From Aureimonas sp. ME7 (lineage in GTDB: Bacteria; Pseudomonadota; Alphaproteobacteria; Rhizobiales; Rhizobiaceae), in contig NZ_CAJCKW010000003.1 in assembly GCF_903970965.1 (NCBI RefSeq), positions 186,001-250,000 of the forward strand: DNA of 64,000 nucleotides, given 5' to 3'. Made by a program: the position numbers and the translations under genes. Under the pieces are notes generated by a model that had not been told where the DNA came from, searched no databases, and worked only from the letters and a program-made list of their open reading frames with translations. Positions 10,582 to 29,106 of the stretch are shown piece by piece; the first letter of the stretch is position 1; each line of letters begins with the position of its first letter.

Positions 10582-12036
10582 CTATGAACCGATCGCGGGG
10601 TGCGCTTCGATGTTCTCCGTCGCCCTGTGGCTCTGCGGCGTCGAGGCAGACGGTCGGCCGGGCTCGCCCAGCCCCTCGGCGATCGCCTGCGCGACGGCCT
10701 GCGCATGCGCCGTCACCTGCGGCAATCCCATGAGCTCGCCGAACGTGCCCCTGGCGAGCGGACCGGCGACGAAAAGGTTGGGAACCGCGTGGCCGTCGCG
10801 ATCGACGGCGAGATGATCGGGGCCGACCTGCAGACCCAGGCCGACGCGATCGAGGGTCGCCAGTCCCTCTTCATGGAGGGAGCGGACGGGCTGACGCTCG
10901 ACGATGCTGCGATGGGCAGGGCCTGTCGTGTTGAGAACGCTGTCGAACGCCTGCGTCCGGGTTTCGCGCGTGCCCCGGGGGCGGAATTCGACGAGAAGCT
11001 GTTCGGGGGCGGTGCGAGACGTGACGAGCCCGGCGGCGATCGAGCGCAGCCGTCCCTCGCCCTCGAGCCTTTCCAGAACGCCCGCCACCTGGGGCGCGAT
11101 CCGGAAGCGGTGAACGTCCCAGAAGCTGCGCAGGCGGCGGACGATCTTTCGCCGCTCGGGCTCGGGCAAGGCTTGCCAGATCTCCGTTCCCTGGCCTCGC
11201 AGCGCATCGAGAACACCGTGCCAGGTCTGCCCGAGCGCTTGCGCCTGCGCGATCGTGCGGCGGACCCGGCGGATCAGGTCGAGGGCCGTTCCGGCTGGCT
11301 TCGACACGAAATCGCCGAAGGGCTCGACGGGGGCGGGCGCATGGGCGCGCGAGCGCAGGCCGTTGCGCGAGAGCATCAGGATCGAGCCGCGATGCCCCAG
11401 GCGGTCGAGCGTGGCGACGGTATCCGCCGCGGTGAGGCCGTTGCCGACGATCAGGACGCGCGCGTGCGCGGATACGCTCGCCAGCGCCCCGGCTTCGGTC
11501 GGATCGGCGATGAAGCGCGGATTTCCCGCCAGCGCCTGCAAAGCGCCTGGAATGGCCGGGGGCGGGTGCGTCGTCGCCAGAACGAGACGATCGGCATGCA
11601 AGGCGCCGTCGGAGAGCGCGATCTCGAACGAACCGTCCCCCCGGCGCCGCACGCTTTGGGCGAACGCGCGCCGATGAACGATCCGGCCTGTCGCGAGCGG
11701 GGGAGCGAGGCAGTCGGCGACGTAGCGCCCGAACAGGCCGCGCTGCGGATAGCTCTGGCCCGAGCCGTCGAACGCGTCCTCGTCGCCCTCCAGCGCATCG
11801 GTTGCGGCGAGCCAGCGCTCGAACGCCTGCGGATCCTGCGTGTCGAGGCTCATGCGCGCGGCCGGAACGTTGATCCGGTGGGCGGGGTCGCTTGTCGAAT
11901 AGGCCAGCCCCGCGCCGAGCGAGGCGCGCGGTTCGACGACGACGATGGAGGTCCGGCGATCGGTGTCGATCAGCGAGAGATGGTAGGCGACGGCCGCGCC
12001 CGTGTAGCCGCCACCGAGAATCGCGACCGTCGTCAC
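10582..12036 (-). CDS. FAD/NAD(P)-binding oxidoreductase (YdhS/HcpA-like)
   Basis: A 484-residue cytoplasmic flavoprotein. An N-terminal dinucleotide-binding motif ([19 protein letters not shown]) is followed by a second at about residues 200-225 ([19 protein letters not shown]), giving sites for FAD and NAD(P)H. The sequence fits the poorly characterised FAD/NAD(P)-binding family around E. coli YdhS. The start is a GTG at 12036 that overlaps the ssuD stop as GTGA; the frame stays open far upstream but that part lies inside ssuD. Being translationally coupled to a flavin-dependent desulfonase, it may handle electrons or an oxidised intermediate in organosulfur use. That role is inference. Confidence 0.75.
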
Positions 12037-13205
12037 GACTGGCTGGCGAGCGGCGCGGGGCGCGTGTCGCCGGCGATCGACTCGCCGAAGGGGCCGGTGT
12101 TCACGCCGGCCGCCTTGGCGCGCAGCGGATGGGCGAGCGGCAGGCGCGGCAGCACGAGTTCGCCGAAGCGATAGGCTTCCTCCAGATGCGGGTAGCCCGA
12201 CAGGATGAAGCTGTCGATGCCGAGGCGCCGGTATTCGTCGATCCGTTCGGCGACCGTATCCGGATCCCCGACGAGAGCGGTGCCGGCCCCGCCGCGCACG
12301 AGGCCGACGCCCGCCCACAGGTTGGGGCTCACCTCCAACTGGTCGCGCTGGCCGCCGTGCAGGCGGCTCATGCGCGCCTGGCCGACCGAGTCCATGCGCG
12401 AGAAGACCTCCTGCGCCTTGGCGATCGTCGCGTCGTCGAGGCGGCTGATGAGGTCTTCGGCCGCTTCCCAGGCCTTCGCCGTGGTTTCGCGCACGATCAC
12501 GTGGAGGCGGATGCCGAAGGACACCGAGCGCCCTTTCGTCTCGGCAAGGGCGCGAACGGTCTCGATCTTCTCGGCGACGAGTGCCGGCGGCTCGCCCCAG
12601 GTGAGATACTTGTCCACCTGCTCGGCCGCGACCTCGTTGGCCGCCTCGGACGACCCGCCGAAGTAGAGCGGCGGGTGCGGCGTCTGGACGGGCGGGAACA
12701 GGAGACGCCCGTCGGAGATGCGGAAATGCTTGCCCTCGTGCTCGACCGTCTCGCCGGCGAGCACGCGCTTGTAGATGTCCAGGAACTCGCGCGTCACCTC
12801 GTAGCGCTCGGCATGGGACAGGAAAATGCCGTCGCCGCCGTTTTCCTTCGGATCGCCACCGGTCACCACGTTGATCAGGAGCCGGCCGTTCGAGATCCGG
12901 TCGAGCGTCGCGGTCATGCGCGCGGCGAGCGTCGGCGACTGGAGTCCGGGGCGCACGGCGACGAGGAAGCGCAGCCGCTCGGTCAGCGGGGCGAGCGCCG
13001 AGGCGACGACCCAGGAATCCTCGCACGAGCGCCCGGTCGGTAGAAGCGCGCCGTAATAGCCGAGCTGGTCGGCGGCTTGGGCGATCTGCCGGAGATAGGG
13101 AAGATCGACGGCGCGACCGCCCTCGCTGGTGCCGAGATAGCGGCTGTCGCCATGGGTGGGGAGAAACCACAGGACGTTGATGGCGTCGGGAATGGAGCGG
13201 CTCAT
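12033..13205 (-). CDS. ssuD: FMNH2-dependent alkanesulfonate monooxygenase
   Basis: A 390-residue bacterial-luciferase-like (LLM) monooxygenase of SsuD type (E. coli SsuD has 381). SsuD uses FMNH2 and O2 to turn alkanesulfonates into aldehyde and sulfite. Seen are [17 protein letters not shown] at the N-terminus, the core [18 protein letters not shown] and [16 protein letters not shown], and [20 protein letters not shown]. The start ATG at 13205 is preceded by AAGGACA; the frame is open upstream but without a site. No ssuE reductase or ssuABC transporter lies beside it. The neighbouring DszA- and SfnB-type genes suggest it performs the last, sulfite-releasing step. Confidence 0.88.
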
Positions 13206-13281
13206 GCTGAATGTCCTTCGTGGTGTCCGGTGCGACCTGCGCCGACCGGGCGGCGAGGGGCGAGGCGGGGTGCGACGGATG

Positions 13282-14694
13282 TCATGCGACCTCGATCGGC
13301 GAATGGCTGGGTTTCGCGTCGCGGCGTTCGGCCCGCGCCGCCAGATGCGCGGCGGCGCCGGCATGGCGGGTCGGCAAACTGTCCTCCGCCCCGAAAAGAC
13401 GGCGGCGCAGCGTGCCCTCGCCATAGGCGGTCTTGTATCGCCCGCGCGACTGGAGCGCGGGCACCACGTGGCGCGTGAAGTCGTGCCAGCATTCGGGCAC
13501 GACGGTGCGCGTCAGGTTGAAGCCGTCGATCTCGCCCTCGTCGATCCAGCGGATCATCTCCTCGGCCACCCGGTCGCCCGAGCCGACGATCAGCGGATAG
13601 CGACCGCCGAGCTTCAGCCCGTCCAGAAGCTGGCGCTTGGTCAGCCCCTTCCGCCGGGCCGCCGCGGTGGTGGACTGGATCGCGTTGGTCGGGCCGTAGG
13701 CGATCTCGTCGTCGAGGCCGTAAGCCGAGAAATCGATGCCGCTGCCGGCGGCGAAATGGGCGAGGCCCGCTTCGGGGTTGGCATGGGCGAGGTAGTCGGC
13801 GAGGCGCTCCTGCGCCTCCGCGTCGCTTCCCCCCGTCACGACGCTGAGGCCGACGAAGATCCGGATGTCGTCCGGCCGCCTGCCTGCCGCCACCACCGCC
13901 TCGCGCAGTTGCCGCGAGGTCCGGCGCGCCGCTTCTGGGTCGGACGCGGAGATGAAGACGCATTCGGCATGGCGCGCGGCGAAGCGCTGCCCCCGGCCCG
14001 AGGTGCCGGCCTGGAAAAGGACGGGCGTTCGCTGGGGCGAGGGCTCGCTGAGGTGGTAGCCTCGGCCCTGATAGTAGGGGCCCTCGTGCCGTATCTCGTG
14101 GAGGCCCCTGGGGTCGGTGTAGAGGCGCGCCGCCTTGTCGCGCCGCACTGCGCCCTCGTCCCAGCTCGCCTCCCAAAGCCCGTAGAGAAAGTCGAGATAG
14201 TCGTCGGCCCGGTCGTAGCGCTCGTCGTGCTCGGCCATGGCGTCGCGCCCGACCGCGCGCGCGGCGCTGTCGAGATAGCCGGTGACGATGTTCCAGCCGA
14301 TGCGCCCGCCCGTCAGGTGGTCCAGCGTCGAGAAGCGCCGGGCGAACGTATAGGGATGCTCGACCGCCGTGTTGACGGTGACCCCGAAGCCGAGATGCGT
14401 CGTCACGGCGGCCATGGCGGGCACGAGCAGCGTCGGGTCGTTGACCGGCAGCTGGATCGACTCGCGCGCGGTCAGGTCGATCGAGGCCCCGTAGACGTCG
14501 TAGACGCCGACGATGTCGGCGATGAACACGGCGTCGAAAAGGCCGGCCTCGAGCGTCCGGGCAAGATCGATCCAGTGGGACAGGCGCGTGTAGTCCTGCG
14601 AGCTGTCGCGCGAATGGGTCCACAGGCCATGGTTGATGTGGCCGACGCAGTTCATCGTGAACGCGTTGAGGAGGATTTCCTTTTGGGCGGTCAT
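13282..14694 (-). CDS. NtaA/SnaA/DszA-family FMN-dependent monooxygenase
   Basis: A 470-residue LLM-fold protein of the family containing nitrilotriacetate monooxygenase NtaA and dibenzothiophene-sulfone monooxygenase DszA. Signatures are [18 protein letters not shown] near the start, [37 protein letters not shown] and [20 protein letters not shown]. Such enzymes need FMNH2 from a separate reductase. Placed ten bases after an SfnB-type gene and before ssuD, it is the likely C-S-cleaving step on a sulfone. A homologue lies at 27700-29106 in the same cluster. The true substrate is unknown; chelator or N-compound oxidation is also possible for this family. Confidence 0.85.
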
Positions 14695-14703: not shown

Positions 14704-15930
14704 TCAGATCGCGCCGTGGCGCGGCGGGCGCTCGCCGGTCAGGGCATATCGTCCGACGATCTGGTATTTCCAGCGCAGGGGATCGTGCGTCGTGTGCGTG
14801 CGCACGTTGCGCCAATGGCGGTCGAAACCGTCGGCGGCGAAAGTCGAGGAGGCGCCGCCGAGCTCGAACAGCTTGGTGGCGGCCCTGAGACCCGCGCGGT
14901 CGCACAGGATGCGGGCCTGCGCCACCGCGATGGACGCCGCTGCGACGCTGGCCTCGTCCGGCGCGTCGCGCGCGGCGTCGACCGTCCTGCCGGCTCGGGC
15001 CAAGAGCGCTTCGGCGGCCCGGAGGCGGACCGCCGTTTCGCCGATTTCCCGAAGGGTCAGAGGGTCGTCCGACGCACGCTCGATCGCGACGTCGATCCAG
15101 GGGCGGGCGCGTGTGCGAACGAAGCGGAGCGTGTCGGCATAGGCCGCGCGGCCGATGCCGAGATCGATCGCCGCATGCATGATCTGCGCGAGCGGGCCGA
15201 CGGTGGTCGGCGCATTGAAGACGGCGCTGAACGGCACGATCCATTCCGGCTCGATCGCGACATCGTCGAAGCGCACCGAGCCCGAGCCGGTGATGCGCTG
15301 GCCGAACCCGTCCCAGTCGTCGCTCACGCTGACGCCGGGTGCATGTCTCGGCACGAAGACGAGGCGCGTGTCGCGTTGGTCGCCCTCGCGAACCAGGGCA
15401 TGGGTCGGGATCCAGTCGGCGTAAAGGGCGCCGGTACAATAGAACTTCGCGCCGTGAAGCCGAAGCCGTCCATCCTTCTCCACGAGCCGCGTGCGCCGGG
15501 AGAAGTCGCGCGTGCCGGTTTCGGCCAAGGCGTTGCCGAAGCGGCGCCCTTCGAGCGCGAGACGGAAGAAGAACGCCTTCTGCGCCTCGCTTCCCGAGAA
15601 GCGCAGCACTTCCAGCGCGTAGAAGTGGTTTTGCGGGATCTGGCCGAGCGATCCGTCGGCGGCTGAGATCGTGGCGATCACCTCGGCCAGTGTTCCGGCC
15701 GAAACGTCGGCCCCGCCGAACGCCCGCGGCACGGTGATGCCCCAAAGGCCGCTGGCGACGAAGCGCTCGAGCTCGTCCCAGGGCAGGTGGCGCTCGGCGT
15801 CGCGTCGGGCCGCCTCGCCTGCGAAGTCCTGCGCCAGGGCATGCGCGGCGCGAAGCGCGTCCGCGTCGGTTTCGATCACCGGCACCGCCGGTCTGGTTGC
15901 CGTGTCCATATTCCGTCTCGTCGCCGCCAT
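14704..15930 (-). CDS. SfnB/DszC-like flavin-dependent monooxygenase, copy 1
   Basis: A 408-residue protein of the acyl-CoA dehydrogenase fold in the SfnB/DszC branch, which uses reduced flavin and O2 to oxidise sulfur compounds rather than dehydrogenating acyl-CoA. Features: GITVPRAFGGADVSAGTLAE, SLGQIPQNHFYALEVLR, DDWDGFGQRITGSGSVRFD and the C-terminal DGFDRHWRNVRTHTTHDP with WKYQIVG. The ATG at 15930 overlaps the TGA of the upstream paralogue (TGATG); a second ATG lies at 15909. With the next gene it is an adjacent paralogous pair, perhaps acting on successive oxidation states or different substrates. Confidence 0.83.
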   Translation of the reverse strand: MAATRRNMDTATRPAVPVIETDADALRAAHALAQDFAGEAARRDAERHLPWDELERFVASGLWGITVPRAFGGADVSAGTLAEVIATISAADGSLGQIPQNHFYALEVLRFSGSEAQKAFFFRLALEGRRFGNALAETGTRDFSRRTRLVEKDGRLRLHGAKFYCTGALYADWIPTHALVREGDQRDTRLVFVPRHAPGVSVSDDWDGFGQRITGSGSVRFDDVAIEPEWIVPFSAVFNAPTTVGPLAQIMHAAIDLGIGRAAYADTLRFVRTRARPWIDVAIERASDDPLTLREIGETAVRLRAAEALLARAGRTVDAARDAPDEASVAAASIAVAQARILCDRAGLRAATKLFELGGASSTFAADGFDRHWRNVRTHTTHDPLRWKYQIVGRYALTGERPPRHGAI

Positions 15931-17123
15931 CAGTTCCACGAGTGCCGGCGGGGGAAGGTGCCGTTCACGGCGTAGTTGCCGAGGAGATGATACTTCCAGC
16001 GCACGGGGTCGTGCAGCGTGTGGACGCGGGCGTTGCGCCAATGGCGGTCGAGGGCGTGGGTGCCCCGCGTCGCCCCGGCGCCTGCCAGATCGAAGAGGGT
16101 TTCGGCCGCCTCCAGCGCGATCTCGGTGGTCAGGATCTTGGCTTCGGCGACCGCGACGGAGGCACGGGCCGAGCTTTCCGGCGTCACCGGTTCGGCGGCG
16201 ATCGCGTCGAGCGTTTCGGCGCTTTCGCGCGTCACGGCTTCGGCCGCCGCGAGCGCGGTGGACAGATGGCCGATGCCATGGCGGATCGTCGGGTCGTCGC
16301 TCGCCCGATCGACGCCCGAATCGATCCACGGCCGGCCCTGGTCGCGGACATAGGCCACCGCGTCGGCAACGGCCGCTCGCGCAATGCCGAGGTCGATCGC
16401 CGCCTGAACCAGCTGCGAGACGGGGCCCGCCAAGGTCGGCCGGTCGGCCATCGCATGAAGCGGCAGCATGTCGTCCGGCGTCACCGCGACGTTGTCGAAG
16501 GTGACCGTTCCGCTCGCGGTGGTGCGCTGGCCGAAGGCCGACCAGTCGTCGACGACGTTCACGCCCGGCGCATCGCGGCGGGCGAAGACGAAGACGGGGC
16601 GATCGTCGGTTCCAAGGGCGCGGGTCGGGATCCAGTGCGCGAAGAGCGCACCGGTGGAATAGAAGCGCTGCCCGTTCAGGCGGAGGCCGTCCGCCCCTGC
16701 CACGACGCGCGTCGTCATGTCGGTCATCCGCTGGCCTGTCCGCTCCGGCCCGGCATTGCCGAAGCGCAGGCCCGCCAGGGCGTCGGCGAAGAAGCGTCGC
16801 TTCTGCTCGGCTGTGCCGATCTCGCTGATGACGGCGAGGACGCCGACCTGGTTCTGCGGAATTTGGCCAAGCGAGGGATCGGCCGCCGAGACCGTGGCGA
16901 AGACTTCCGCGAGCGTCGCAAAGGAAACGTCGGCACCGCGGAACTCGCGCGGGACCGTGATCCCGCCGAGGCCGCTGGAACTCCAGCGATCGAGTTCGAC
17001 ACGTGGGAACACGCGGTTTCGATCGCGCTCGGCGGCACCGATGACGGCTCCCTCAGCGAGGCGCGAGGCGGCAGCGAGCGCATCGGCGTCGTCGCGGATG
17101 ACATGGGCGGGGGCCGGGCTCAT
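15930..17123 (-). CDS. SfnB/DszC-like flavin-dependent monooxygenase, copy 2
   Basis: A 397-residue paralogue of the preceding gene with the same order of motifs: GITVPREFRGADVSFATLAE, SLGQIPQNQVGVLAVISE, DDWSAFGQRTTASGTVTFD and a C-terminal HALDRHWRNARVHTLHDP with WKYHLLGNYAVNGTFP. Family members such as Pseudomonas SfnB act in dimethyl sulfone and sulfonate use under sulfate limitation. It begins 12 bases after the end of metI and its stop overlaps the start of copy 1, so transporter and oxidases are probably one transcript. A conserved catalytic base of true acyl-CoA dehydrogenases is not evident, in line with a monooxygenase role. Confidence 0.83.
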   Translation of the reverse strand: MSPAPAHVIRDDADALAAASRLAEGAVIGAAERDRNRVFPRVELDRWSSSGLGGITVPREFRGADVSFATLAEVFATVSAADPSLGQIPQNQVGVLAVISEIGTAEQKRRFFADALAGLRFGNAGPERTGQRMTDMTTRVVAGADGLRLNGQRFYSTGALFAHWIPTRALGTDDRPVFVFARRDAPGVNVVDDWSAFGQRTTASGTVTFDNVAVTPDDMLPLHAMADRPTLAGPVSQLVQAAIDLGIARAAVADAVAYVRDQGRPWIDSGVDRASDDPTIRHGIGHLSTALAAAEAVTRESAETLDAIAAEPVTPESSARASVAVAEAKILTTEIALEAAETLFDLAGAGATRGTHALDRHWRNARVHTLHDPVRWKYHLLGNYAVNGTFPRRHSWN

Positions 17124-17135: not shown

Positions 17136-17789
17136 TCAGCGGGCGCGAAGGCGGCGCACGGCGGTATCGCCGAAGAACTGGACGATCGAGACGAGCGCGA
17201 CGAGGATGGCGATGACGACCATCATCAGCGTCGTGTCGAAGCGCTGGTAGCCGTAGCGGATCGCGAGATCTCCGAGCCCGCCGGCCCCGACCGCGCCGGC
17301 CATGGCCGAAGCGCCGATCATCGTCACCAGCGTGACGGTGAAGCCGCCGACGAGGCCGGGCAGGGCTTCCGGCAGGAGAACGTGCCGGATAATATGCCGG
17401 CGACGGCAGCCCATCGCCTGGGCGGCCTCGATCAGGCCGGCGTCGACCTCGCGCAGCGAGACCTCCGCGATGCGAGCGAAGAAGGGGGTCGCCGAGATCG
17501 ACAGGGGGACGATCGCCGCCCAGACGCCGATCGTCGTACCGGTCAGAAGGCGCGTCAGCGGCAGGAGCGCCACCAGAAGCACGATGAAGGGCGTGGCGCG
17601 GAACCCGTTGACCACGGCCGACAGGATTCGGTGGGCGAGGGGCGCGGCGACGATGCCGCCGGGCGCCGAGAGAACCAGGAACAGCGCTAGCGGAATGCCG
17701 GCAAGGAGCGCGATCCCGGCCGAGATGCCGACCATCGAGAGCGTATCGATCAAGGCTGCCTGGATGCGGGCGATCATCGCGTCAGACAT
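17136..17789 (-). CDS. metI: Methionine-type ABC transporter permease
   Basis: A 217-residue permease, the same size as E. coli MetI (217). It has five or so membrane segments and the conserved [20 protein letters not shown] and [20 protein letters not shown] loop that docks on MetN. The ATG at 17789 lies eight bases inside the end of metN, which fixes the start against a longer open frame to 17924. It forms the membrane part of a MetQNI importer. In this setting it may carry methionine, methionine sulfoxide or another organosulfur compound, because it is followed directly by two SfnB-type oxidase genes. Confidence 0.9.
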
Positions 17790-18912
17790 AGCCGAGAACC
17801 TTCGCATCCAAATCCGTGGGAACCGGCAGTCCGGACGCGCCGCCGAGGCGCGCGGCGACCAGCAGGCGACCCTGCGTATGCCCGCCGATACGGTCGAGCG
17901 CGGCATCGAGCAGGCGCAGGCCATGGGGAAAGGAAGCGCCGAGCGCCGTCAGGTCGGGCTCTTCGGTCCCGGAATAGCGCAGCTCGACGATGGCTTCGGT
18001 GCGCCCCGAGGCGTCGGGCGAAAGCCGCGTGGCGAGGTCGTCCGGCAATCCCCGCGCCAAGGGTTCGAGGAGGGCCTTGGTCGCCGCATGTTGCGGCGCT
18101 CCGAAGACCTGCCAGACGGCGCCGCTTTCCGCCACCTCGCCTCGATCCAGAACGAGGACGCGGTCGCAGATCTCCCGGATCACGCTCATCTCGTGGGTGA
18201 TGAGGACGATCGTCAGGCCGAGACGGTGGTTGATGTCCTTCAGGAGCGCCAGGATCTGGAGCGTCGTTTCGGGATCGAGCGCCGATGTCGCCTCGTCGCA
18301 GAGGAGGATGTCGGGCTTCGACACCAGCGCGCGCGCGATGCCGACGCGCTGCTTCTGGCCGCCCGACAGCCGGGAGGGGTAGGCGCTTTCCTTGCCGACC
18401 AGCCCGACCAGAGCGAGCACGTCGTCGACGCGCCGGCCGATCTCGACGCGGGGCACGCCGGCGACGAGAAGCGGGAGCGCGACGTTCTCGCGCACGGTCT
18501 TGGCCGACAGGAGGTTGAAGTGCTGGAACACCATGCCGACCCGGCGCCGGAAGGCGACGAGCGCGTCGGTATCCAGCGCCGCGATGTCCTCGCCGTCGAT
18601 GAGGACGCAGCCTTCGGACGGCTCCTCCAGGCGGTTGACGAGGCGCAGGAGGGTGGACTTGCCGGCGCCGGAGCGGCCGATGATGCCGAAGATCGAGCCT
18701 CCGGGCACGTCGGCGTCGATGTGCCCAAGTGCCCTGACCTCGCCCGAACCCGCCCGGTACGTCTTGCCGATCCGTTCGAAGCGGACCGATCCGGCGCGCC
18801 TCGGCGTATCCGCGCGCTCGTCGCCCACACGAAGCTTCGCCGCCCGACCAACCCGCGCTGGCGAAGGTGTGGCGGAGCCTGCGCGCAGGAGGGGCAAAAA
18901 CATTTCGGACAT
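17782..18912 (-). CDS. metN: Methionine-type ABC transporter ATP-binding protein
   Basis: A 376-residue ATPase. Walker A is GRSGAGKST, followed by a Q-loop [12 protein letters not shown], signature [17 protein letters not shown] and Walker [18 protein letters not shown]-terminal region of about 100 residues after the ATPase domain matches the NIL regulatory domain of MetN, where methionine binding inhibits transport. The N-terminus has about 40 residues before the first ATPase strand (FERIGKTY), longer than usual (MetN about 343), so a later start is possible. It lies 48 bases after metQ and overlaps metI. Confidence 0.9.
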
Positions 18913-22129: not shown

Positions 22130-23476
22130 TCACTGGCTGGCGACGTCGCGCGGGGTGATGTTGTTCTCCTTGGCGTAGGCGGCGGACTTGGCATCGATCA
22201 GCGGGCGCAGCGTCTGCCGGTCCGCCTGCACCCAGTCGCTGATGAGGTTCCACTTCGCCCCGTCCCATTGCTGGACGCGCACCGCGCCGCCGCCTTCATG
22301 ATCGGCAGGGCTGAGCGCCAGGTTCTGCGTCAGGCCGAGGAAGCCGGCCTTTGCCAAGGCCACGTCGTCGAGCTTCAGGTGCTCCAGCGCCCATTGGCCT
22401 TCCTCGCCGGTGATCGGCCGGTTGCCGAACTTCGCCTGCGCCTGGCGCACGATCTCGACGTTGAGAAGCGCGTTGGTGAGGCCGGAATTGTAGTAGACGC
22501 TGCCGAAGAGCTTGGGATCGCGGAGGTCCGACTTGCCCTTGTCGAGGATGTTCTCCTTCAGGCGCTTGTGGATCTCGAAGTCGGTGCCGGCCGGATAGGG
22601 CGTCAGCGCCAGATAGCCCTTGGCCGCCTCGCCGGCCGGGATCACGTCGTCCTCCGAAGAGGCCCAGACGTCGCCGACGATATGGTCGGCGGGGAAGCCG
22701 AAGCGCTGCGCGGTCTTGATGGCGACCGGCGTCGACACGCCCCAGGTGCGCAGGAAGATCCAGTCGGGCTTTTCTTCGCGAACCTGTCGCCACTGCGAGT
22801 TCTGCTCGCTGCCGGGATCGGGCACCGGAATCTGGATGTTCTCGAAGCCGTACTTCTCGGCGAGCAGCGCCAGCGGGTCGAGCGTTTCGCGGCCATAGGC
22901 GGAGTCGTGATAGACGGTCGCGATCTTCTTGCCCTTGAGCTTGTCGAAGCCGCCTTCCCGCTCGGCGATGTAGTTCACCAGCGCCGAGGCCTCGCTATAG
23001 AAGGTCACGACGACGGGGAAGTTGAAGGGGAAGACGCGCCCGTCCGTGGCTTCCGTCCGGCCGTAGGCCAGGGTCACGAGTGGGATCTTGTCGGCGGCCG
23101 CGCGGTCCGACAGGGCGTAGGCGGCCGGCGCGCCGTTCGGGAAGTAGGCGGCGACGGGCGCGCCGTTCAGGCCGTTCTTCGCGCGCTCGTAGCACTCGAT
23201 GCCCTTTTCGGCGGTCCATTCCGTCTCGCATTCCTGCCAGACGATCGGCACGCCGTTGATACCGCCCTCCACCTCGTTGATGTAGCGGTAGTAGTCGATC
23301 ATTCCCGCCCAGATGGAAACGCCGGAAGCGGCATAGGCGCCGACGCGGTAGCTGGCGATGGGAAAGAACTGCTTGTCAGAATCCGGCCCCGGTGCCGTGT
23401 CGGCGGCAAAGGCCGCCGTGGCCAGCAACGCAGCGGCCATCGCGCCGAGCGTGGTCTTCAGAAGGGTGCGTGTCAT
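22130..23476 (-). CDS. Branched-chain-type ABC substrate-binding protein, tandem copy A
   Basis: A 448-residue exported protein with signal MTRTLLKTTLGAMAAALLAT ending near AFAAD, then the LivK/type-1 periplasmic-binding fold. ATG 23476 is chosen over 23491 because GGGGGATCC lies eight bases before it. The mature part is close to copy B along its whole length: both share RVGAYA-SG, YINEVEGGI-GV, NYIAEREGGFDKLKGKKI, DPG-EQ-PQWRQ, FLRTWGVST and DKGKSDLRDPKLFG. At about 420 residues it is longer than classic LivK. Ligand unknown; context suggests an organosulfur compound rather than leucine. Confidence 0.85.
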   Translation of the reverse strand: MTRTLLKTTLGAMAAALLATAAFAADTAPGPDSDKQFFPIASYRVGAYAASGVSIWAGMIDYYRYINEVEGGINGVPIVWQECETEWTAEKGIECYERAKNGLNGAPVAAYFPNGAPAAYALSDRAAADKIPLVTLAYGRTEATDGRVFPFNFPVVVTFYSEASALVNYIAEREGGFDKLKGKKIATVYHDSAYGRETLDPLALLAEKYGFENIQIPVPDPGSEQNSQWRQVREEKPDWIFLRTWGVSTPVAIKTAQRFGFPADHIVGDVWASSEDDVIPAGEAAKGYLALTPYPAGTDFEIHKRLKENILDKGKSDLRDPKLFGSVYYNSGLTNALLNVEIVRQAQAKFGNRPITGEEGQWALEHLKLDDVALAKAGFLGLTQNLALSPADHEGGGAVRVQQWDGAKWNLISDWVQADRQTLRPLIDAKSAAYAKENNITPRDVASQ

Positions 23477-23526: not shown

Positions 23527-24849
23527 TCAGTTGGTTTCGGGCGTGCGCGGCGTGATGTTGTTCTGCGCGGCGTAGGCGGCGGCGCCCTCCTGGATCAGCG
23601 GGCGAATGAGGTCATGGTCGGCCTTGATCCAGTCGGTCTGCAGAACCCACTTCTGCCCGTCCCAGCTTTGGATGCGGGCAGCGCCCCCGCCCTCGTGGTC
23701 GGCGGGCGTGATGGCGATCGGCTGGAGAAGGCCGTCGAAGCCGATCTCCTTCAGCCGCGCTTCGTCGATCGCCAGATGCTCGAAGGCCCAGCGGCCTTCC
23801 TCGCCGTCGAGCGGCCGGGCGCCGAAATGCTTGTAGCCGGTGCGCAGCGCTTCCACGGCGAGCGCCGCGTTGACGAGGCCGATATTGTAGTTCACCGCGC
23901 CGAAGAGCTTGGGGTCGCGAAGGTCGGATTTGCCCTTGTCGAGAATTTCGGCCTTCAGACGCTTGTGGATCTCGAAGTCCGTGCCGCCGGGATAGGGGGC
24001 GAGGGCGGAGTATCCGACCGCCGCCGTTCCCGCCGGCATGACGTCGGATTCGGAGCCCGCCCACACGTCGCCGATGATATGGTCGGCGGGAAAGCCGAAA
24101 CGTTGCGCGGTCTTCAGCGCCACGACGGTGGAGACGCCCCAGGTGCGCAGGAAGATCCAGTCGGGCTTGGCCTCGCGAATCTGGCGCCACTGCGGCGACT
24201 GCTCGTTGCCGGGGTCGGCGACCGGAATCTGGATGTTCTCGAAGCCGTATTTCTCGGCGAGAAGCTCCACCGCCGGCTGGCTGGCGCGGCCATAGGCGGA
24301 GTCGTGGTAAAGGGTGACGATCTTCTTGCCCTTGAGCTTGTCGAAGCCGCCTTCCCGCTCGGCGATGTAGTTGATGCCGGTGGAGGCCTGGCTGTAATAG
24401 GAGAAGAGGAGCGGAAAGGCGTAGGGAAACACCGAGCCGTCGACGCTCTCGGTCTTGCCGCCCGCCGGGTCGATCAGCGGGATCCTGTCGGCCGCCGCCT
24501 TTTCCAGAAGCGCATAGGTCGCGGGCGTGCCGTGGGTGAAGAAGAAGGCGAGGGGCGAGCCGTTCTTGCCCGCCTTGACCCGCTCGTAGACCTCCACGGT
24601 CCGGTCCGGGCTCCACTCGGTCTCGAACTCCTCGTAGTCGAGCTTGACCCCCTCGATGCCGCCTTCCACCTCGTTGATGTAGCGGAAATAGTCGCGCTCG
24701 CCGGCCCACCAGAGCTCGCCCGACGAGGCATAGGCCCCGACGCGGTAGGTCGGCAGCGGCACGTATTGCGTTACGCCATCGGCGAAGGACGGGGCGGCGG
24801 ACCCGAGGACGGTCCCGGCCAGGAGCAGGACGGAAAGAAGGCGCTTCAC
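23527..24849 (-). CDS. Branched-chain-type ABC substrate-binding protein, tandem copy B
   Basis: A 440-residue exported protein. The start is a GTG at 24849 with AAGGTAAG upstream; the signal is VKRLLSVLLLAGTVLGSAAP followed by SFADG. The mature domain aligns end to end with copy A, including the C-terminal pattern NNITPR, so the two arose by tandem duplication. Differences cluster near the ligand side of the first lobe (for example YFRYINEVEGGIEGVKLDYE against YYRYINEVEGGINGVPIVWQ), which hints at different ligand range through one shared permease. It lies five bases after livM. Confidence 0.85.
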   Translation of the reverse strand: MKRLLSVLLLAGTVLGSAAPSFADGVTQYVPLPTYRVGAYASSGELWWAGERDYFRYINEVEGGIEGVKLDYEEFETEWSPDRTVEVYERVKAGKNGSPLAFFFTHGTPATYALLEKAAADRIPLIDPAGGKTESVDGSVFPYAFPLLFSYYSQASTGINYIAEREGGFDKLKGKKIVTLYHDSAYGRASQPAVELLAEKYGFENIQIPVADPGNEQSPQWRQIREAKPDWIFLRTWGVSTVVALKTAQRFGFPADHIIGDVWAGSESDVMPAGTAAVGYSALAPYPGGTDFEIHKRLKAEILDKGKSDLRDPKLFGAVNYNIGLVNAALAVEALRTGYKHFGARPLDGEEGRWAFEHLAIDEARLKEIGFDGLLQPIAITPADHEGGGAARIQSWDGQKWVLQTDWIKADHDLIRPLIQEGAAAYAAQNNITPRTPETN

Positions 24850-24854
24850 GGGAC

Positions 24855-25919
24855 TTACCTTTGAACGGAGGGAAAGAGAGTGCGGCGGGCAACGCCCGAT
24901 GGGCGCAGGCCGAGAAGACGGGCAAGGCCTTCGGGCTCCCGGATCAGGAACCAGATGATGAGGGCCCCGAAGATCGCCTTCTGGACGTTCTGAAGGACGC
25001 CGGCGTCGACCTGGCCGGCGAAGACATGCTGGACCAGCCAGTCGAGGCCGAGCGGGAGGAGGCTGACGAAGGCGGCGCCGAGATAGGCGCCCCGGATGGT
25101 GCCGAGACCCCCGATGATGATGATGAACAGGATCTGGTAGGAGCGCGACAGGCCGAAGCTCTGGACGCTGGCCGAGCCGAGATAGGCGAAGGCCCAAAGC
25201 GCGCCGGCGATCCCGAGGAGGAAGGAAGAGACGGCGAAGGCCTGGAGCTTGGCGCGCCGCACCGGCACGCCGATCACGGCCGCCGCCGTGTCCATGTCGC
25301 GCACCGCCATCCAGTTGCGCCCGGTCTGGGAGCGAACGAGATTGAGGGCGAGAAGGGTCGAGAGCGCGACGACCCCAAGCGTCAGCCAGTAGCGTCCATG
25401 TGGGCCGTTGAGGTCGAGGCCGAAGAGATGGAGACCGCCGGGCAGCGCGATCGTCGCCGACGAGTTGGCGTTGTAGAACCAGGGGAACTTCAGGAACAGC
25501 CACTCGAAGAAGAACTGTGCGCAGAGCGTCGAGACGATGAGGTAGAAGCCCTTGATGCGCGTCGAGGGCAGGCCGAACAGGAAGCCGACCGCGCCGGCGA
25601 TGACACCGGAAGCGACGAGGGCCAGCGGCAGCGGCAATTCGGGAAGGCGCAGCTGGAAGGCGAAGGTCGCATAGGCCCCGACCATCATGAAGGCGCCCGA
25701 ACCCAGCGACAGCTGGCCGGCATAGCCGGTCAGAAGGTTGAGCCCGAGCCCGGCGAGCGACAGGATCAGGAAGGGCACGACGATCGCGTTGACCCAATAT
25801 TCCGTGGCGAAGAAGGGCACCGCGACAAGGACGAGACCGGCAGCCATCAGAAGCGCGATGCGAGGTGCGTCCGAGCGGACAGGGGACGGGGTGACGACGG
25901 GAAGCGCGGCTTGCGACAT
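24855..25919 (-). CDS. livM: Branched-chain amino acid-type ABC permease, LivM-like
   Basis: A 354-residue permease with about ten hydrophobic segments. It shows LNLLTGYAGQLSLGSGAFMM, the LivM hallmark, then YLIVSTLCAQFFFEWLFLK and the cytoplasmic RSQTGRNWMAVRDMDTAAAVIGV loop contacting the ATPases. Start ATG 25919 follows the livH stop by only four bases; a longer open frame to 26054 would run into livH. It forms a heterodimer channel with LivH. As with the other liv genes here, the substrate is probably a sulfur compound rather than an amino acid, judged from the flanking oxidases. Confidence 0.9.
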   Translation of the reverse strand: MSQAALPVVTPSPVRSDAPRIALLMAAGLVLVAVPFFATEYWVNAIVVPFLILSLAGLGLNLLTGYAGQLSLGSGAFMMVGAYATFAFQLRLPELPLPLALVASGVIAGAVGFLFGLPSTRIKGFYLIVSTLCAQFFFEWLFLKFPWFYNANSSATIALPGGLHLFGLDLNGPHGRYWLTLGVVALSTLLALNLVRSQTGRNWMAVRDMDTAAAVIGVPVRRAKLQAFAVSSFLLGIAGALWAFAYLGSASVQSFGLSRSYQILFIIIIGGLGTIRGAYLGAAFVSLLPLGLDWLVQHVFAGQVDAGVLQNVQKAIFGALIIWFLIREPEGLARLLGLRPSGVARRTLFPSVQR

Positions 25920-25923
25920 CGGG

Positions 25924-26805
25924 TCAGACCCTTTCGATCCGGCGTTCGCCGAAAAGGCCCGCCGGGCGCACGAACAGAAAGAGAAGCGCGAGCGCGTAGG
26001 CGAACCAGGGCGTGATGCCGCCGCCGATGAACGGCCCAACATAGGTTTCGGCAAGGCTCTCCCCGGCTCCGACGATCAGGCCGCCGACGATGGCGCCGGC
26101 GATCGAGGTGAAGCCGCCGATGATGAGAACGGGGAGCGCCTTCAGTACCACCAGCGACAGCGAGAACTGGACACCCTGGCGGGCGCCCCACAGGAGACCG
26201 GCGACGAGACCGGCAATGCCCGCGACCGCCCAGACGATCTGCCAGATGCGGTTGATATCGATGCCGAGCGACAGGGCGGCGCGCGTATCGTCGGCGACGG
26301 CGCGCAGCTGGATGCCGATGCGCGTCCGGTTGAACAGGAGCGACAGGGCGAGGACGAGCGCGAGTGCGACGCCGGCGGCGACGAGGTCGAACTGGCTGAC
26401 GAGGATGTCCCCGAAAAAGACGGGGAGGTCCTCGATGCCGAGATCGAGCGCGCGCACCTGCGAGCCCATGACCCCCTGCGCCACGCCTTCCACCACGTAG
26501 GACAGGCCGAGCGTCGCCATGAAGAGCGTCAGGGGGCTGCGGTTGGTCAGCGGGCGCAGAAGCAGGCGCTCGATCGCGATCGCGGTGAGGACGAGGAGCG
26601 CGATCGTGATCGCCGCGGCTCCGACCGCCGGCACGCCGGCATCGGTCAGCGAGACGAAGGTGAGCGCGCCGAAGAGGAGGAGCGACCCTTGCGCATAGTT
26701 GAAGACGCCGGACGCCTTGTAGATGAGGACGAAGCCGATCGCGACGAGCGAATACATGGTGCCGGCGAGAAGTCCGCCGATCAGCGTTTCCAGAAACAGG
26801 CTCAT
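25924..26805 (-). CDS. livH: Branched-chain amino acid-type ABC permease, LivH-like
   Basis: A 293-residue permease starting MSLFLETLIGGLLAGTMYSL, the typical LivH N-terminus, with IYKASGVFNYAQGSLLLFGA and the ATPase loop LRAVADDTRAALSLGIDI. About eight membrane segments are apparent. The ATG at 26805 overlaps the end of livG by four bases (ATGA), so both are translated together. It partners LivM downstream to form the pore of the importer whose binding proteins are encoded at 22130-24849. Confidence 0.9.
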   Translation of the reverse strand: MSLFLETLIGGLLAGTMYSLVAIGFVLIYKASGVFNYAQGSLLLFGALTFVSLTDAGVPAVGAAAITIALLVLTAIAIERLLLRPLTNRSPLTLFMATLGLSYVVEGVAQGVMGSQVRALDLGIEDLPVFFGDILVSQFDLVAAGVALALVLALSLLFNRTRIGIQLRAVADDTRAALSLGIDINRIWQIVWAVAGIAGLVAGLLWGARQGVQFSLSLVVLKALPVLIIGGFTSIAGAIVGGLIVGAGESLAETYVGPFIGGGITPWFAYALALLFLFVRPAGLFGERRIERV

Positions 26806-27590
26806 GCGGCGAGCTCGCCATGCTCGGCGCCGAGATAGGCAGCGATGACGTCCGGGTTGTCGCGGATCGTGCCCGGCGCCCCGTCGGCGAGCTTGCGGCC
26901 GTAGTCGAGAACGACGACGTGGGTGGCGAGCTTGAGAACGATGCCGATGTCGTGCTCGATGAGGACGATCGTCAGCTTCAGATCGCGGTTGAGCCGGGCG
27001 ATCAGCGCGGCGATCTCAGCCTTTTCGGCGGCGTTCATGCCGGCCAGCGGCTCGTCCAAAAGAAGAAGCGTCGGCTCGGCGACGATGGCGCGCGCCAGCT
27101 CCACCTTCTTCTGGATGCCGTAGGCGAGTGTGCCGACCACCGTCTCGGCATGCGGCTCGAGGTCGAGAAGCGCAAGGACTTCGCGCGCCCGGGCTTCGAA
27201 ACGGCGCTCCTGGTTCCGAGCGCGCGGCAGCCGCAGCGCTTCCTCGATCAGCGTCACGGCTGAGCGCCGCGACAGTCCGGCGATGACGTTGTCGAGAACG
27301 CTCATGCCGGAAAACAGAGCGTTGTTCTGGAAGCCGCGTCCGATGCCGCGACGGGCGGCATCCCCGGGGCGCATCCGGGCGAAGCGCTCGCCCTCGAAGA
27401 CGATCTCGCCGCTATCGGGTACGTAGACGCCGTTGAGGATGTTGAGGAGCGAGCTCTTGCCCGCCCCGTTCGGGCCGATCAGGGCGCAGATCTCGCCGCG
27501 CCGGACGCGAAACGACAGATCGGAGATCGCCTTCACGCCCCGAAACGACAGGGACACGCTGCGGACCTCCAGGGCGGGATCGTGGCTCAT
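26802..27590 (-). CDS. livG: Branched-chain amino acid-type ABC transporter ATPase, LivG-like
   Basis: A 262-residue ABC ATPase: Walker A GPNGAGKSS, Q-loop GIGRGFQNNALFSGMSVLDN, signature region TLAYGIQKKVELARAIV (the usual SGGQ is replaced by AYGIQ, a variation common in LivG-like proteins) and Walker B LLLLDEPLAGMN. It is the second gene of the transcript starting at the DszA-like gene, 109 bases downstream of it. The gap holds a perfect hairpin. With LivF it powers import through LivH/LivM. Confidence 0.88.
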   Translation of the reverse strand: MSHDPALEVRSVSLSFRGVKAISDLSFRVRRGEICALIGPNGAGKSSLLNILNGVYVPDSGEIVFEGERFARMRPGDAARRGIGRGFQNNALFSGMSVLDNVIAGLSRRSAVTLIEEALRLPRARNQERRFEARAREVLALLDLEPHAETVVGTLAYGIQKKVELARAIVAEPTLLLLDEPLAGMNAAEKAEIAALIARLNRDLKLTIVLIEHDIGIVLKLATHVVVLDYGRKLADGAPGTIRDNPDVIAAYLGAEHGELAA

Positions 27591-27640
27591 GGTTGAAAGG
27601 GTTCCGGTTTCGGGAGATCAAGCGGACATGCGCCCGCCAT

Positions 27641-27663
27641 CGCCGGCGCGCGAAGCGCCGGCG
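27641..27663. repeat. Perfect hairpin between the DszA-like gene and livG
   Basis: CGCCGGCGC (27641-27649) and GCGCCGGCG (27655-27663) form a 9-bp stem with a five-base loop. It lies in the 109-base gap of a same-strand gene series and has no T run on either strand. It could stabilise the upstream mRNA end or lower expression of the transporter relative to the enzyme. Confidence 0.6.
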
Positions 27664-27699
27664 TTCGTCGATCGAAAGGGGCGGGACGCTCCTTCGGTG

Positions 27700-29106
27700 T
27701 CAGGCGGCTTGGGTGCGCCTTGCCGCTTCCTCCTCCCGCTTCACCCGCTCGATGTCGCGGAAGCGGTGGGCGGGGTGCGTCTCGGGGAGATAGGCGCCCT
27801 CGCCGAACAGTTTTTCGCGCAAGGTTCCCGGCCGGTAGGCCTTCGTGTAGACGCCGCGCTTCTGGAGTTCGGGCACGACGTAGCCGATGACGTCTGTGAA
27901 GGAATCGTGTGCCAGCGCATAAGCGAGGTTGAAGCCGTCGATATCGGTCTCCTCCACCCACTCCTGCAGGAGGTCGGCGATCGTTTCCGGCGAGCCGACG
28001 AAGAGCGGCCCCATGCCGCCGATGCCGCCCCATTGGGCGAGCTCCTCGATGGTCCAGACCTTGTCGCCCTCGGCCAGCTGCTCCACCGCCGAGACGATGG
28101 CGTTGGTCTTCACCTTCTTGACCGTGTCGCTCGGGCGGTAATGGCCGAAATCGATGCCCGTCCATCCCGACATCAGGACGAGGGCGCCGTCATAGGAGGC
28201 GTATTTTGCGTAGTCCTCGTACTTCGCCCTGGCCTTCTCATCGGTCTCGTCGACGATGATCGTCGCCATCGCGTAGATCAGGACCTTCTTCGGGTCCCGT
28301 CCTTGCGCAGCGGCGCGGGCGCGGATGTCGGCGACATAGGCCTTGGTCGCGCTTTTCAGCGGCGTCGAGATGAAGACGCATTCGGCGTGCCCGGCGGCGA
28401 ACGCCTTGCCTGCGCCGGACGCGCCGGCCTGGAAAAGGACGGGAGTTCGCTGGGGCGATGGCTCGGCGAGATGGTAGCCGGGAACGTCGAAATAGGTGCC
28501 CTTGTGGCCGATCTCATGGATTTTGGCGGGGTCGGCGAAGATCCCGCGCTCCCGGTCGCGCACCACCGCGCCCTCTTCCCAGCTTCCCTCGAACAGCTTG
28601 TAGAGGACCTCGACATATTCGGTGGCAATCTCGTAGCGGTTGTCATGCGTCTGAAGACCGCCCTGGCCGACGTTCTTCGCCCCGCTTTCGAGATAGGAGG
28701 TGACGATGTTCCAGCCGACGCGCCCCTTGGTATGGTGGTCGGCCGTGGAAAGGCGCCGGGCGAACGTATAGGGGTGCTCGAAGCTGGTGGAGGCGGTGAT
28801 GCCGATGCCCAGATGCTCGGTCGCGAGCGCGATCGGATTGGCGAGCTGCAGCGGGTCGTTGACCGGGATCTGGACGCCTTGCGTCAAGGCATGGTCGAGA
28901 TTGCCCTTGTAGACGTCGTAGTAGCCGACGACGTCGGCGATGAAGACCGAATCGAACAGCCCCCCTTCGAGAATCTTCGCCAGGTCCGTCCAGTACTCCA
29001 GATCCTTGTACTGCCAGGAACGGTCGCGCGGATGACGCCAAAGGCCCGGGGACTGGTGGCCGACGCAGTTCATTTCGAAGGCGTTGAAACGGATCGTCTT
29101 GCTCAT
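27700..29106 (-). CDS. DszA/NtaA-family FMN-dependent monooxygenase, first gene of the sulfur cluster
   Basis: A 468-residue LLM monooxygenase. Signatures: [60 protein letters not shown] and PVLFQAGASGAGKAFAAGHA. These match DszA (dibenzothiophene-5,5-dioxide monooxygenase) and NtaA-type enzymes. ATG 29106 is chosen over an upstream TTG because TTGGGGA lies just before it. Paralogue of the enzyme at 13282-14694. As the first gene before a complete Liv-type importer and a DszC-like oxidase, it probably cleaves a C-S bond of an imported sulfone, using FMNH2 from an unlinked reductase. Confidence 0.87.
   Translation of the reverse strand: MSKTIRFNAFEMNCVGHQSPGLWRHPRDRSWQYKDLEYWTDLAKILEGGLFDSVFIADVVGYYDVYKGNLDHALTQGVQIPVNDPLQLANPIALATEHLGIGITASTSFEHPYTFARRLSTADHHTKGRVGWNIVTSYLESGAKNVGQGGLQTHDNRYEIATEYVEVLYKLFEGSWEEGAVVRDRERGIFADPAKIHEIGHKGTYFDVPGYHLAEPSPQRTPVLFQAGASGAGKAFAAGHAECVFISTPLKSATKAYVADIRARAAAQGRDPKKVLIYAMATIIVDETDEKARAKYEDYAKYASYDGALVLMSGWTGIDFGHYRPSDTVKKVKTNAIVSAVEQLAEGDKVWTIEELAQWGGIGGMGPLFVGSPETIADLLQEWVEETDIDGFNLAYALAHDSFTDVIGYVVPELQKRGVYTKAYRPGTLREKLFGEGAYLPETHPAHRFRDIERVKREEEAARRTQAA

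What the first reader, a model, noticed from the sequence alone, without database searches (positions are those of the whole stretch)
10582..29106. Organosulfur island with two importers, three SfnB/DszC-type and two DszA-type oxidases plus SsuD
Sequence shows two same-strand gene series: DszA-like, livGHM, two binding proteins, livF, DszC-like; then metQNI, two SfnB-like, DszA-like, ssuD and an FAD/NAD(P) protein. From known families (DszC/DszA, SfnB, SsuD) one can infer a route thioether to sulfone to sulfonate to sulfite. No flavin reductase, DszB-type sulfinase or ssuABC is present. The mix of a liv-type and a met-type transporter with these oxidases is not one I can match to a described pathway.
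Basis: partly seen in the sequence, partly recalled or inferred. Interest (0 to 1): 0.75.

Follow-up and report, generated by a model that had tools for sequence, protein, structure and literature searches.

The report
Two-module organosulfur scavenging gene island
A bacterium carries, side by side, two gene sets that each pair a transporter with flavin-using oxygenases to strip sulfur from small organic molecules, and one of the transporters is kin to one found beside the dimethyl-sulfone-cleaving enzyme in other bacteria.

Summary
In detail: 16 minus-strand genes (10582-29106) in the order given, with 255 bases between the halves. It is not a one-off. The liv half, in the same order, is on a Rhizobium leguminosarum plasmid; the met half, with ssuD and the FAD protein nearby, is on an Aureimonas plasmid; liv- and met-type importers also meet in a genome outside the window's class. 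The liv-type importer belongs to a family that elsewhere sits behind sfnG, the dimethyl-sulfone monooxygenase. Binding-protein and permease trees split cleanly into SfnG-linked and DmoA-like-oxygenase-linked clades; the window is in the second. Its genome shows no SfnG or MsuE and no close MsuC. The MetQ-like protein has lost two of three residues that hold the amino-acid end of methionine. The "missing" flavin reductase has a close relative on another contig. Best reading: two sulfate-starvation modules that import a small thioether, sulfoxide or sulfone, oxidise it (SfnB/Dms-type), cut C-S bonds (DmoA-like enzymes, SsuD) and release sulfite. New variant of the known sfn/msu/dms pathways; it makes the uncharacterised sulfone importer testable. 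No substrate is shown.

The parts
27700..29106 (-). LLM_A1: DmoA/NtaA-family FMNH2-dependent monooxygenase (first gene of the liv half); predicted C-S cleaving
   Evidence: TIGR03860 535.8 bits, passes; best solved relative DmoA 6ak1 528.8 bits, LadA 473, DszA 210, NTA-type 179, EDTA-type 150
26802..27590 (-). LivG-like ABC ATPase
   Evidence: PF00005 and BCA_ABC_TP_C; LivG model 225.7 of 362 needed
25924..26805 (-). LivH-like permease
   Evidence: UrtB/LivH models well below cut-off; tree
24855..26054 (-). LivM-like permease; the TTG start at 26054 overlaps livH and is probably too far upstream
   Evidence: PF02653 from residue 91
23527..24849 (-). PBP1: Peripla_BP_6 substrate-binding protein
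   Evidence: PF13458; signal-like N-terminus from GTG 24849
22130..23476 (-). PBP2: second Peripla_BP_6 binding protein
   Evidence: PF13458; solved relative 4ru0, 769 bits
21249..22070 (-). LivF-like ABC ATPase; stop overlaps the next start
   Evidence: PF00005; LivF model 203 of 441
20020..21249 (-). DszCL: acyl-CoA-dehydrogenase-fold (group D) flavin monooxygenase, predicted S-oxygenase, last gene of the liv half
   Evidence: SfnB model 265 bits, below cut-off; TdsC 5xb8 132 bits, MsuC 6u76 108; relatives divergent from sfnG in 10 of 16 named Pseudomonas loci
19765..20019 (.). 255-base gap between the halves with an AT-rich stretch; probable promoter of the met half
   Evidence: sequence; no shared motif beyond shuffles with other sulfur operons of the genome
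18961..19764 (-). MetQ-like binding protein with altered ligand pocket
   Evidence: PF03180; N238 to Ile, N213 to Tyr or His, Y81 to Trp, R156 kept
17782..18912 (-). MetN-like ABC ATPase
   Evidence: 329.3 of 499.7 bits of the MetN model
17136..17789 (-). MetI-like permease; overlaps metN by 8 bases
   Evidence: PRK10782 214.2 against 212
15930..17123 (-). SfnB-a oxidase
   Evidence: TIGR04022 564.8 bits, passes
14704..15909 (-). SfnB-b oxidase
   Evidence: TIGR04022 577.8 bits, passes
13282..14694 (-). LLM_A2: second DmoA/NtaA-family monooxygenase
   Evidence: TIGR03860 517.8 bits; DmoA 452, LadA 440, DszA 248 bits
12033..13205 (-). SsuD alkanesulfonate monooxygenase
   Evidence: TIGR03565 632.6 bits, passes
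10582..12036 (-). FADN: FAD/NAD(P) flavoprotein whose predicted fold resembles class B (N-hydroxylating) monooxygenases; overlaps ssuD by 4 bases
   Evidence: PF13454; model pLDDT 84.2; FzmM 8cp5 E 2.2e-21, TMq 0.72; SsuD within the 1.5-kb flank in 8 of 13 close homologues, the window's own included

Best explanation
The island is two adjacent sulfur-scavenging modules that also occur apart. Module 1 (LLM_A1, livGHM, two binding proteins, livF, DszCL) imports a small uncharged thioether, sulfoxide or sulfone through a liv-type ABC importer that is sister to the one tied to sfnG elsewhere; DszCL puts oxygen on sulfur up to the sulfone and LLM_A1 cuts a C-S bond. Module 2 (metQNI-like, two SfnB, LLM_A2, SsuD, FADN) does the same for a second compound through a MetQ-type importer whose binding protein probably no longer fits methionine; SsuD releases sulfite from the resulting sulfonate for both modules, and FADN, a class-B-like flavoprotein, probably does one further oxidation, perhaps sulfinate to sulfonate. 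FMNH2 comes from an HpaC/RutF-like reductase encoded on another contig. Expected to be switched on when sulfate runs out. Shown: gene content, families, recurrent order, tree split, lost pocket residues, a reductase relative in the genome. Inferred: substrates, order of steps, regulation, FADN's reaction, which reductase serves.
For: Families and order. Liv cassette with LLM_A1 elsewhere (L044, L046, L055, L116, L167, and L047 with LLM_A1 after livF) and on an R. leguminosarum plasmid, 75-89% identity for all eight genes. In 11 of 20 labelled cassettes sfnG lies upstream instead, each passing the curated SfnG model; binding-protein and LivH trees need one change between LLM_A1- and SfnG-linked cassettes, supports 100/99 and 99/99, shuffled means about 7. 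Of 12 genomes of 398 with PBP2 at 50% identity or more, 11 carry SfnG; of 35 with weaker PBP2, none. Within 10 kb of the DszCL relative, SfnG (55% or more) lies in 21 of 80 named loci and LLM_A1 (55% or more) in 19 of 80. PMC13352529: group D enzymes make DMSO and DMSO2 from DMS, SfnG/MsuC/SsuD follow, one reductase serves the route, six genes tested rise about 400- to 3800-fold on DMS against sulfate. Met half in Aureimonas with reductase-ssuD-FADN beside it. MetQ pocket.
Against: No substrate, expression or growth data for this organism. The same paper found no group C (LLM-type) enzyme of A. baylyi active on DMS. LadA (an alkane monooxygenase) is almost as near to LLM_A1 and LLM_A2 as DmoA. 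In 39 of 80 named loci none of SfnG, LLM_A1, LLM_A2 or SsuD at 55% or more lies within 10 kb of the DszCL relative, though a few loci are short. Of the 13 regions read around PBP2 relatives of 50% or more outside the window, 4 show no LLM gene beside the cassette, two of these near a contig end. No shared promoter motif was found.
Confidence: 0.62

Rival explanations
1. Plain stand-in for the dimethyl-sulfone pathway: LLM_A1 simply replaces SfnG, so the liv module imports and cleaves DMSO2 itself.
For: LLM_A1 occupies the place before livG where sfnG sits elsewhere; the own genome has no SfnG over cut-off.
Against: Genome G231 has both cassettes, LLM_A1-linked and SfnG-linked (L167, L170), and G392 and G416 have an LLM_A1 cassette plus SfnG elsewhere; the importers form separate clades.
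Confidence: 0.25
2. Amino-acid thioether salvage (S-alkylcysteine, S-succinocysteine, methionine sulfone), with LLM_A1/A2 acting like CmoJ/YtnJ and the importers still binding amino-acid-like ligands.
For: liv- and met-type importers are amino acid importers by ancestry; YtnJ is a relative (244 and 207 bits).
Against: DmoA scores about twice as many bits; the MetQ-like protein lost the two Asn that clasp the amino and carboxyl groups; no acetyltransferase or deacetylase among the 16 gene models.
Confidence: 0.12
3. Chelator (NTA/EDTA-type) or other nitrogen-compound degradation.
For: The family model is named NtaA/DmoA.
Against: NTA- and EDTA-type monooxygenases score 179 and 150 bits against 529 for DmoA, and SfnB, SsuD and SfnG-linked relatives frame the cassettes.
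Confidence: 0.03
4. Aromatic thiophene desulfurisation (4S, dsz).
For: DszC/DszA homology.
Against: DszC model 109-203 bits against 850 needed; DszA 210 and 248 bits; no dszB-like gene among the 16 models; the rest of the genome was not searched for DszB.
Confidence: 0.02

Closest known systems
sfn/msu dimethyl-sulfone pathway of Pseudomonas (SfnG, MsuC, MsuD/SsuD, MsuE, SfnB)
   Same: SfnB oxidases, SsuD, and a liv-type importer that elsewhere sits behind sfnG; P. putida's sfn operon is described as holding predicted ABC transporters (PMC8234197, passages)
   Different: No SfnG over cut-off, no MsuE and no close MsuC in this genome; DmoA-like enzymes and FADN instead; a second, MetQ-type importer
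Dms1/Dms2/Dms3 DMS assimilation of Acinetobacter baylyi (PMC13352529)
   Same: Group D enzymes beside SfnB relatives; the position of DszCL relatives near sfnG in Pseudomonas fits PP_2762, called a dms2/dms3 homologue there
   Different: Dms2 itself was not compared letter by letter; there the C-S cutter is the SfnG homologue and no importer is named in the sections read
DmoA dimethyl-sulfide monooxygenase (PDB 6ak1)
   Same: Nearest solved relative of LLM_A1 and LLM_A2
   Different: DmoA has a neighbouring reductase gene (DmoB) and can serve carbon and energy supply (PMC13352529 introduction); here importers and SfnB-type oxidases accompany it
MetNIQ methionine importer
   Same: Three-gene architecture and families; Arg156 and the FQH motif kept
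   Different: MetN and MetQ below curated cut-offs; both ligand-clasping Asn lost
Met half of Aureimonas sp. AU20 plasmid pAU20a
   Same: metQNI, two sfnB, LLM in the same order; ssuD-FADN nearby (64-87% identity; FADN 59%)
   Different: There ssuD-FADN is divergent and led by a flavin reductase; no liv module in the 22 kb read (the record has other matches that were not read)

Membership tests
sfn/msu dimethyl-sulfone pathway | SfnG over its curated cut-off in the genome | tested here: not met
   Best 170.5 bits against 382.95; none at E 1e-100
sfn/msu dimethyl-sulfone pathway | MsuE-type FMN reductase | tested here: not met
   0 matches in the own genome at E 0.001
sfn/msu dimethyl-sulfone pathway | MsuC methanesulfinate monooxygenase | tested here: not met
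   No match at E 1e-90 in the own genome with a Robbsia query that I call MsuC-like from position and homology; weaker group D relatives exist
sfn/msu dimethyl-sulfone pathway | SfnB and SsuD/MsuD | tested here: met
   TIGR04022 twice and TIGR03565 once over cut-off
sfn/msu dimethyl-sulfone pathway | SfnR-type sigma-54 regulator | not tested
   not searched in the own genome
sfn/msu dimethyl-sulfone pathway | Induction by sulfate starvation | not testable with these tools
   No expression data; motif search negative
Dms2-type group D S-oxygenase (DszCL) | Orthology to A. baylyi Dms2 or P. putida PP_2762 | tested here: inconclusive
   Those sequences were not at hand; gene position beside sfnG in Pseudomonas fits
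DmoA DMS monooxygenase (LLM_A1, LLM_A2) | Sequence closest to DmoA among solved structures | tested here: met
   528.8 and 452.4 bits, LadA next
DmoA DMS monooxygenase (LLM_A1, LLM_A2) | FMNH2-dependent DMS cleavage | not testable with these tools
   needs enzyme assay
MetNIQ methionine importer | MetN and MetQ models over cut-off | tested here: not met
   329.3 of 499.7; 167.5 of 228.85 and 184.6 of 374
MetNIQ methionine importer | R156, N213, N238 around the amino and carboxyl groups of methionine | tested here: not met
   R kept, both Asn replaced
Branched-chain amino acid importer LivFGHM | Subunits over curated cut-offs | tested here: not met
   LivG 225.7/362, LivF 203/441, LivM 96.8/366, LivH 77/379
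4S dibenzothiophene pathway | DszC over curated cut-off | tested here: not met
   202.8, 198.6 and 109.4 bits against 850
Class B flavoprotein monooxygenase (FADN) | Two-dinucleotide-domain fold of the N-hydroxylase/FMO kind | tested here: inconclusive
   Predicted model only; FzmM ranks first (TMq 0.72), PvdA, SidA follow, but dihydrolipoyl dehydrogenase and thioredoxin-reductase-like folds also match
Class B flavoprotein monooxygenase (FADN) | NADPH- and O2-dependent oxygenation | not testable with these tools
   needs enzyme assay

The most novel reading that the evidence does not exclude
The liv cassette with LLM_A1 and the liv cassette with SfnG are two branches of one undescribed family of sulfone importers, each matched to its own C-S-cutting enzyme: the SfnG branch is the uncharacterised dimethyl-sulfone transporter, and the LLM_A1 branch, in the window, serves another dialkyl sulfone or thioether. 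In addition FADN is a single-component class-B flavoprotein that takes MsuC's place (sulfinate to sulfonate), so this genome runs the route without SfnG, MsuC or MsuE.
Probability: 0.3. Interest if true: 0.68.

Novelty: new variant of a known kind. Interest (0 to 1): 0.52.

Why it matters
PMC8234197 (figure legend) states that transporters for dimethyl sulfone have yet to be characterised. The liv-type family traced here is a concrete candidate with a built-in control: two sister clades, split by the oxygenase beside them, whose binding proteins can be purified and titrated; a close relative of the window's PBP2 is already a solved structure (4ru0). The MetQ-like protein with its methionine clasp removed offers a second direct test. 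If right, soil and plant bacteria import organosulfur compounds through proteins now labelled branched-chain amino acid and methionine transporters.

Tried and rejected
Shared promoter motif among five sulfur-operon upstream regions of the genome: no pair stood out from its shuffles (six shuffles a pair). FADN as a simple MsuE replacement: weakened, because L170 and L171 hold FADN and an MsuE relative of 40-43% together (these relatives were not run against the MsuE model). Chelator, 4S and methionine readings: set aside on scores and pocket residues. LLM_A1 as a pure SfnG swap: weakened by G231, G392 and G416.

Rows dropped or not used: in the cassette trees, cassettes with no LLM gene found beside them were kept as rows but not labelled (13 of 34 binding-protein rows, 12 of 32 LivH rows). 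The tally left out loci under 15 kb (6 of 107). Of the 51 match places two are the window's own; 20 of the other 49 were read as 8-20 kb regions: 3 were labelled LLM_A1, 6 SfnG and 11 neither. Passages of PMC12357092, PMC8557817 and PMC7661421 were seen and add no more than that met-type transporter and NtaA-type proteins turn up in other sulfur-starvation data sets.
Full report
What is there. Pfam and NCBIfam scans name them: LLM_A1, livG, livH, livM, two Peripla_BP_6 binding proteins, livF, a DszC-fold oxidase (here DszCL); then metQ, metN, metI, SfnB-a, SfnB-b, LLM_A2, SsuD, and a FAD/NAD(P) protein (here FADN). These short names are mine; so are the labels MsuC-like and SfnR-like for relatives, which rest on position and homology, not on a curated model. 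Neighbouring genes overlap or lie close together except for 255 bases between DszCL and metQ, so there are most likely two transcription units. Against curated cut-offs SfnB-a, SfnB-b, SsuD, both LLM proteins and MetI pass; DszCL, MetN, MetQ and all four Liv subunits do not.

Is the mixture peculiar to this genome? No. The liv half recurs in other families of the order (L044, L046, and L047 with LLM_A1 after livF), in Methylobacterium (L055) and Ensifer (L116) and in a genome of the window's own family (L167). On a Rhizobium leguminosarum plasmid (NZ_CP018236, L210) it stands in the same order with 75-89% identity per gene, both binding proteins included, with an IS transposase one gene removed and no met half in the 19 kb read. 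The met half stands in the same order on Aureimonas sp. AU20 plasmid pAU20a (L211), beside a divergent flavin reductase, ssuD and FADN. In six enterobacterial loci (L075, L085, L091, L094, L109, L111; Erwinia, Pantoea, Pseudocitrobacter) the run is SsuD, FADN, an LLM_A1 relative, metNI and a DszCL relative, with SfnG between SsuD and FADN in L075; two further Pantoea loci (L107, L118) have SsuD, FADN, LLM_A1 and DszCL relatives without metNI.

The liv importer. In Robbsia, Variovorax, Pseudomonas botevensis, Paraburkholderia nodosa, a beta-proteobacterial MAG and six unnamed-genome regions, sfnG lies upstream of livG, adjoining it or, in L084 and L165, with about 1.2 kb between. All 11 pass the curated SfnG model: 622-644 bits for the five named ones, 439-626 for the six others. 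I labelled each cassette by the LLM gene nearest upstream of livH within 2.5 kb (one, L047, by the nearest on the same strand) before building trees. Both the binding-protein tree (34 rows) and the LivH tree (32 rows) put all SfnG-linked rows on one side of a branch and all LLM_A1-linked rows, the window included, on the other: one change, supports 100/99 and 99/99, shuffled means about 7, 0 of 500 shuffles as low (a quicker tree agrees). Among 398 Pseudomonadota genomes 47 have a PBP2 match at E 1e-90. Of the 12 with 50% identity or more, 11 have SfnG; the exception is the window's own genome. Of the other 35, none has it; SfnG is in 20 of 398 overall (Fisher p about 2e-15 if genomes were independent, which they are not: the 12 fall in 8 genera, 7 of them with SfnG). 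SfnG is beside the cassette in six of the 12 (G216, G231, G380, G462, G466, G494); in the other five it lies elsewhere in the genome. G231 carries one cassette of each kind (L167, L170), so the two probably have different jobs. I take the family to import small sulfones or related compounds; the SfnG branch is a candidate for the dimethyl-sulfone transporter, which PMC8234197 calls uncharacterised (figure legend passage). That paper also says P. putida's sfn operon holds predicted ABC transporters, so the neighbourhood itself is not new to print. So I cannot say that the link is absent from print.

The oxidases. LLM_A1 and LLM_A2 are nearest DmoA (528.8, 452.4 bits), then LadA (473, 440); DszA, YtnJ and the chelator enzymes are far behind. 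DszCL is nearest TdsC, then MsuC. Of 16 named Pseudomonas loci its relative stands divergent from sfnG in 10 and near an LLM_A1 relative in 3; of 6 Acinetobacter loci it follows an SfnB relative in 4 and lies near sfnG and msuE in 2. This fits PMC13352529, of which I read abstract, introduction, results and discussion: in A. baylyi the group D enzymes Dms1 and Dms2 (ACIAD0427, ACIAD0428) and Dms3 turn DMS into DMSO and DMSO2, P. putida PP_2762 is homologous to Dms2 and Dms3, and the SfnG homologue is PP_2765. The paper's negative result, that no group C enzyme of A. baylyi oxidised DMS, counts against LLM_A1-type enzymes acting on DMS itself, if A. baylyi has one; it leaves sulfones open.

Reductase. 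The own genome has no MsuE match but has four PF03358 and three PF01613 matches. The reductase beside ssuD in Aureimonas has a 72.5% relative on contig C5, the best of the three PF01613 places, beside a GGDEF protein and imelysin-like proteins, not sulfur genes. PMC13352529 shows that one reductase can serve all oxygenases of such a route.

MetQ. PMC6739813 (passages) gives R156, N213 and N238 as contacts of the amino and carboxyl groups and Y81, F98, H100, Y103 around the thioether; N238A weakens L-Met binding more than 10^5-fold. In the window F98, H100 and R156 are kept, N238 is Ile, N213 is Tyr (MAFFT) or His (pairwise), Y81 is Trp and Y103 is Phe. Of 24 other MetQ relatives in the neighbourhoods, 9 share the Trp and lack both Asn, 9 keep both Asn, 6 are mixed; Arg is kept in 23 of 24. 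The Aureimonas protein has the same local sequences. So the importer probably carries something without an alpha-amino-acid head; that is an inference from residues.

FADN. No sequence match in the PDB below E 0.7. An AlphaFold model from 10 sequences (pLDDT 84.2) matches aspartate N-hydroxylase FzmM best (E 2.2e-21, TMq 0.72), then ornithine and lysine hydroxylases; dihydrolipoyl dehydrogenase and thioredoxin-reductase-like folds also match. Close homologues (41% or more, own genome included) occur in 13 of 398 genomes, with SsuD inside the 1.5-kb flank in 8 of 13. In 101 neighbourhoods of 15 kb or more, 12 hold FADN, all with SsuD, 11 hold the MsuC-like gene, none both. I suggest a single-component oxygenase acting near the sulfinate or sulfonate step; the count is not significant after allowing for kinship.

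Elsewhere in the genome. Eight NtaA/DmoA-family genes are over cut-off, two of them in the window, and 13 SfnB-model matches were found, two over cut-off. A second cluster (contig C6, L039) joins SsuC/SsuA-like transport genes with two LLM, an SfnB relative and SsuD; a third (C7, L040) joins an amino-acid/cystine-type importer with two LLM and an SfnB relative. The organism thus pairs different importer types with the same oxygenase families, which supports the modular reading.

Verdict. A real, recurrent, modular sulfur-scavenging island; a new variant of known pathways, with a testable candidate for a missing transporter. Substrates remain unknown.

Noticed in passing
L107:1972-3858, also L085, L091, L094, L109, L111, L118: A sigma-54 activator (SfnR-like by homology, about residues 10-320) fused in one reading frame to an SsuA-type sulfonate-binding domain (343-629; TIGR01728 166.8 bits, passes, in L107). 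The fusion is seen in 7 enterobacterial loci (Pantoea, Erwinia, Pseudocitrobacter), five of them cut by the locus end; looks like a direct sulfonate-sensing regulator.
   Followed up: partly
own genome contig C6, L039:6055-14239: Second organosulfur cluster: SsuC/SsuA-like transport genes (below cut-offs), two NtaA/DmoA-type LLM, an SfnB relative and SsuD, with a LacI-type regulator gene upstream.
   Followed up: partly
own genome contig C7, L040:1503-9239: Amino-acid/cystine-type ABC importer with two LLM monooxygenases, a GarL/HpaI-type aldolase and an SfnB relative.
   Followed up: partly
own genome contig C6, L038:8529-13204: Two tandem DszC-like oxidases followed by an LLM relative (31%).
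   Followed up: no
window 2578-10503, + strand: Convergent neighbour: Peripla_BP_5 and SBP_bac_5 binding proteins, a formamidase/acetamidase (FmdA_AmdA) and two ABC ATPase domains with oligo_HPY; looks like amide or peptide uptake and hydrolysis.
   Followed up: no
window 29472-31703, + strand: Hybrid histidine kinase (PAS, HisKA, HATPase, two receiver stretches) divergent from LLM_A1; no evidence that it controls the island.
   Followed up: no
window 31718-33160 and 33182-34717, - strand: Pentapeptide-repeat protein and a DUF2252 protein beside each other.
   Followed up: no
window 45047-45121 (-) and 45285-45360 (+): tRNA-Thr(ggt) and tRNA-Phe(gaa), divergent.
   Followed up: no
window 22130-23476: PBP2 is very close (769 bits) to solved structure 4ru0, deposited as a putative branched-chain amino acid binding protein; I do not know its ligand.
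   Followed up: partly
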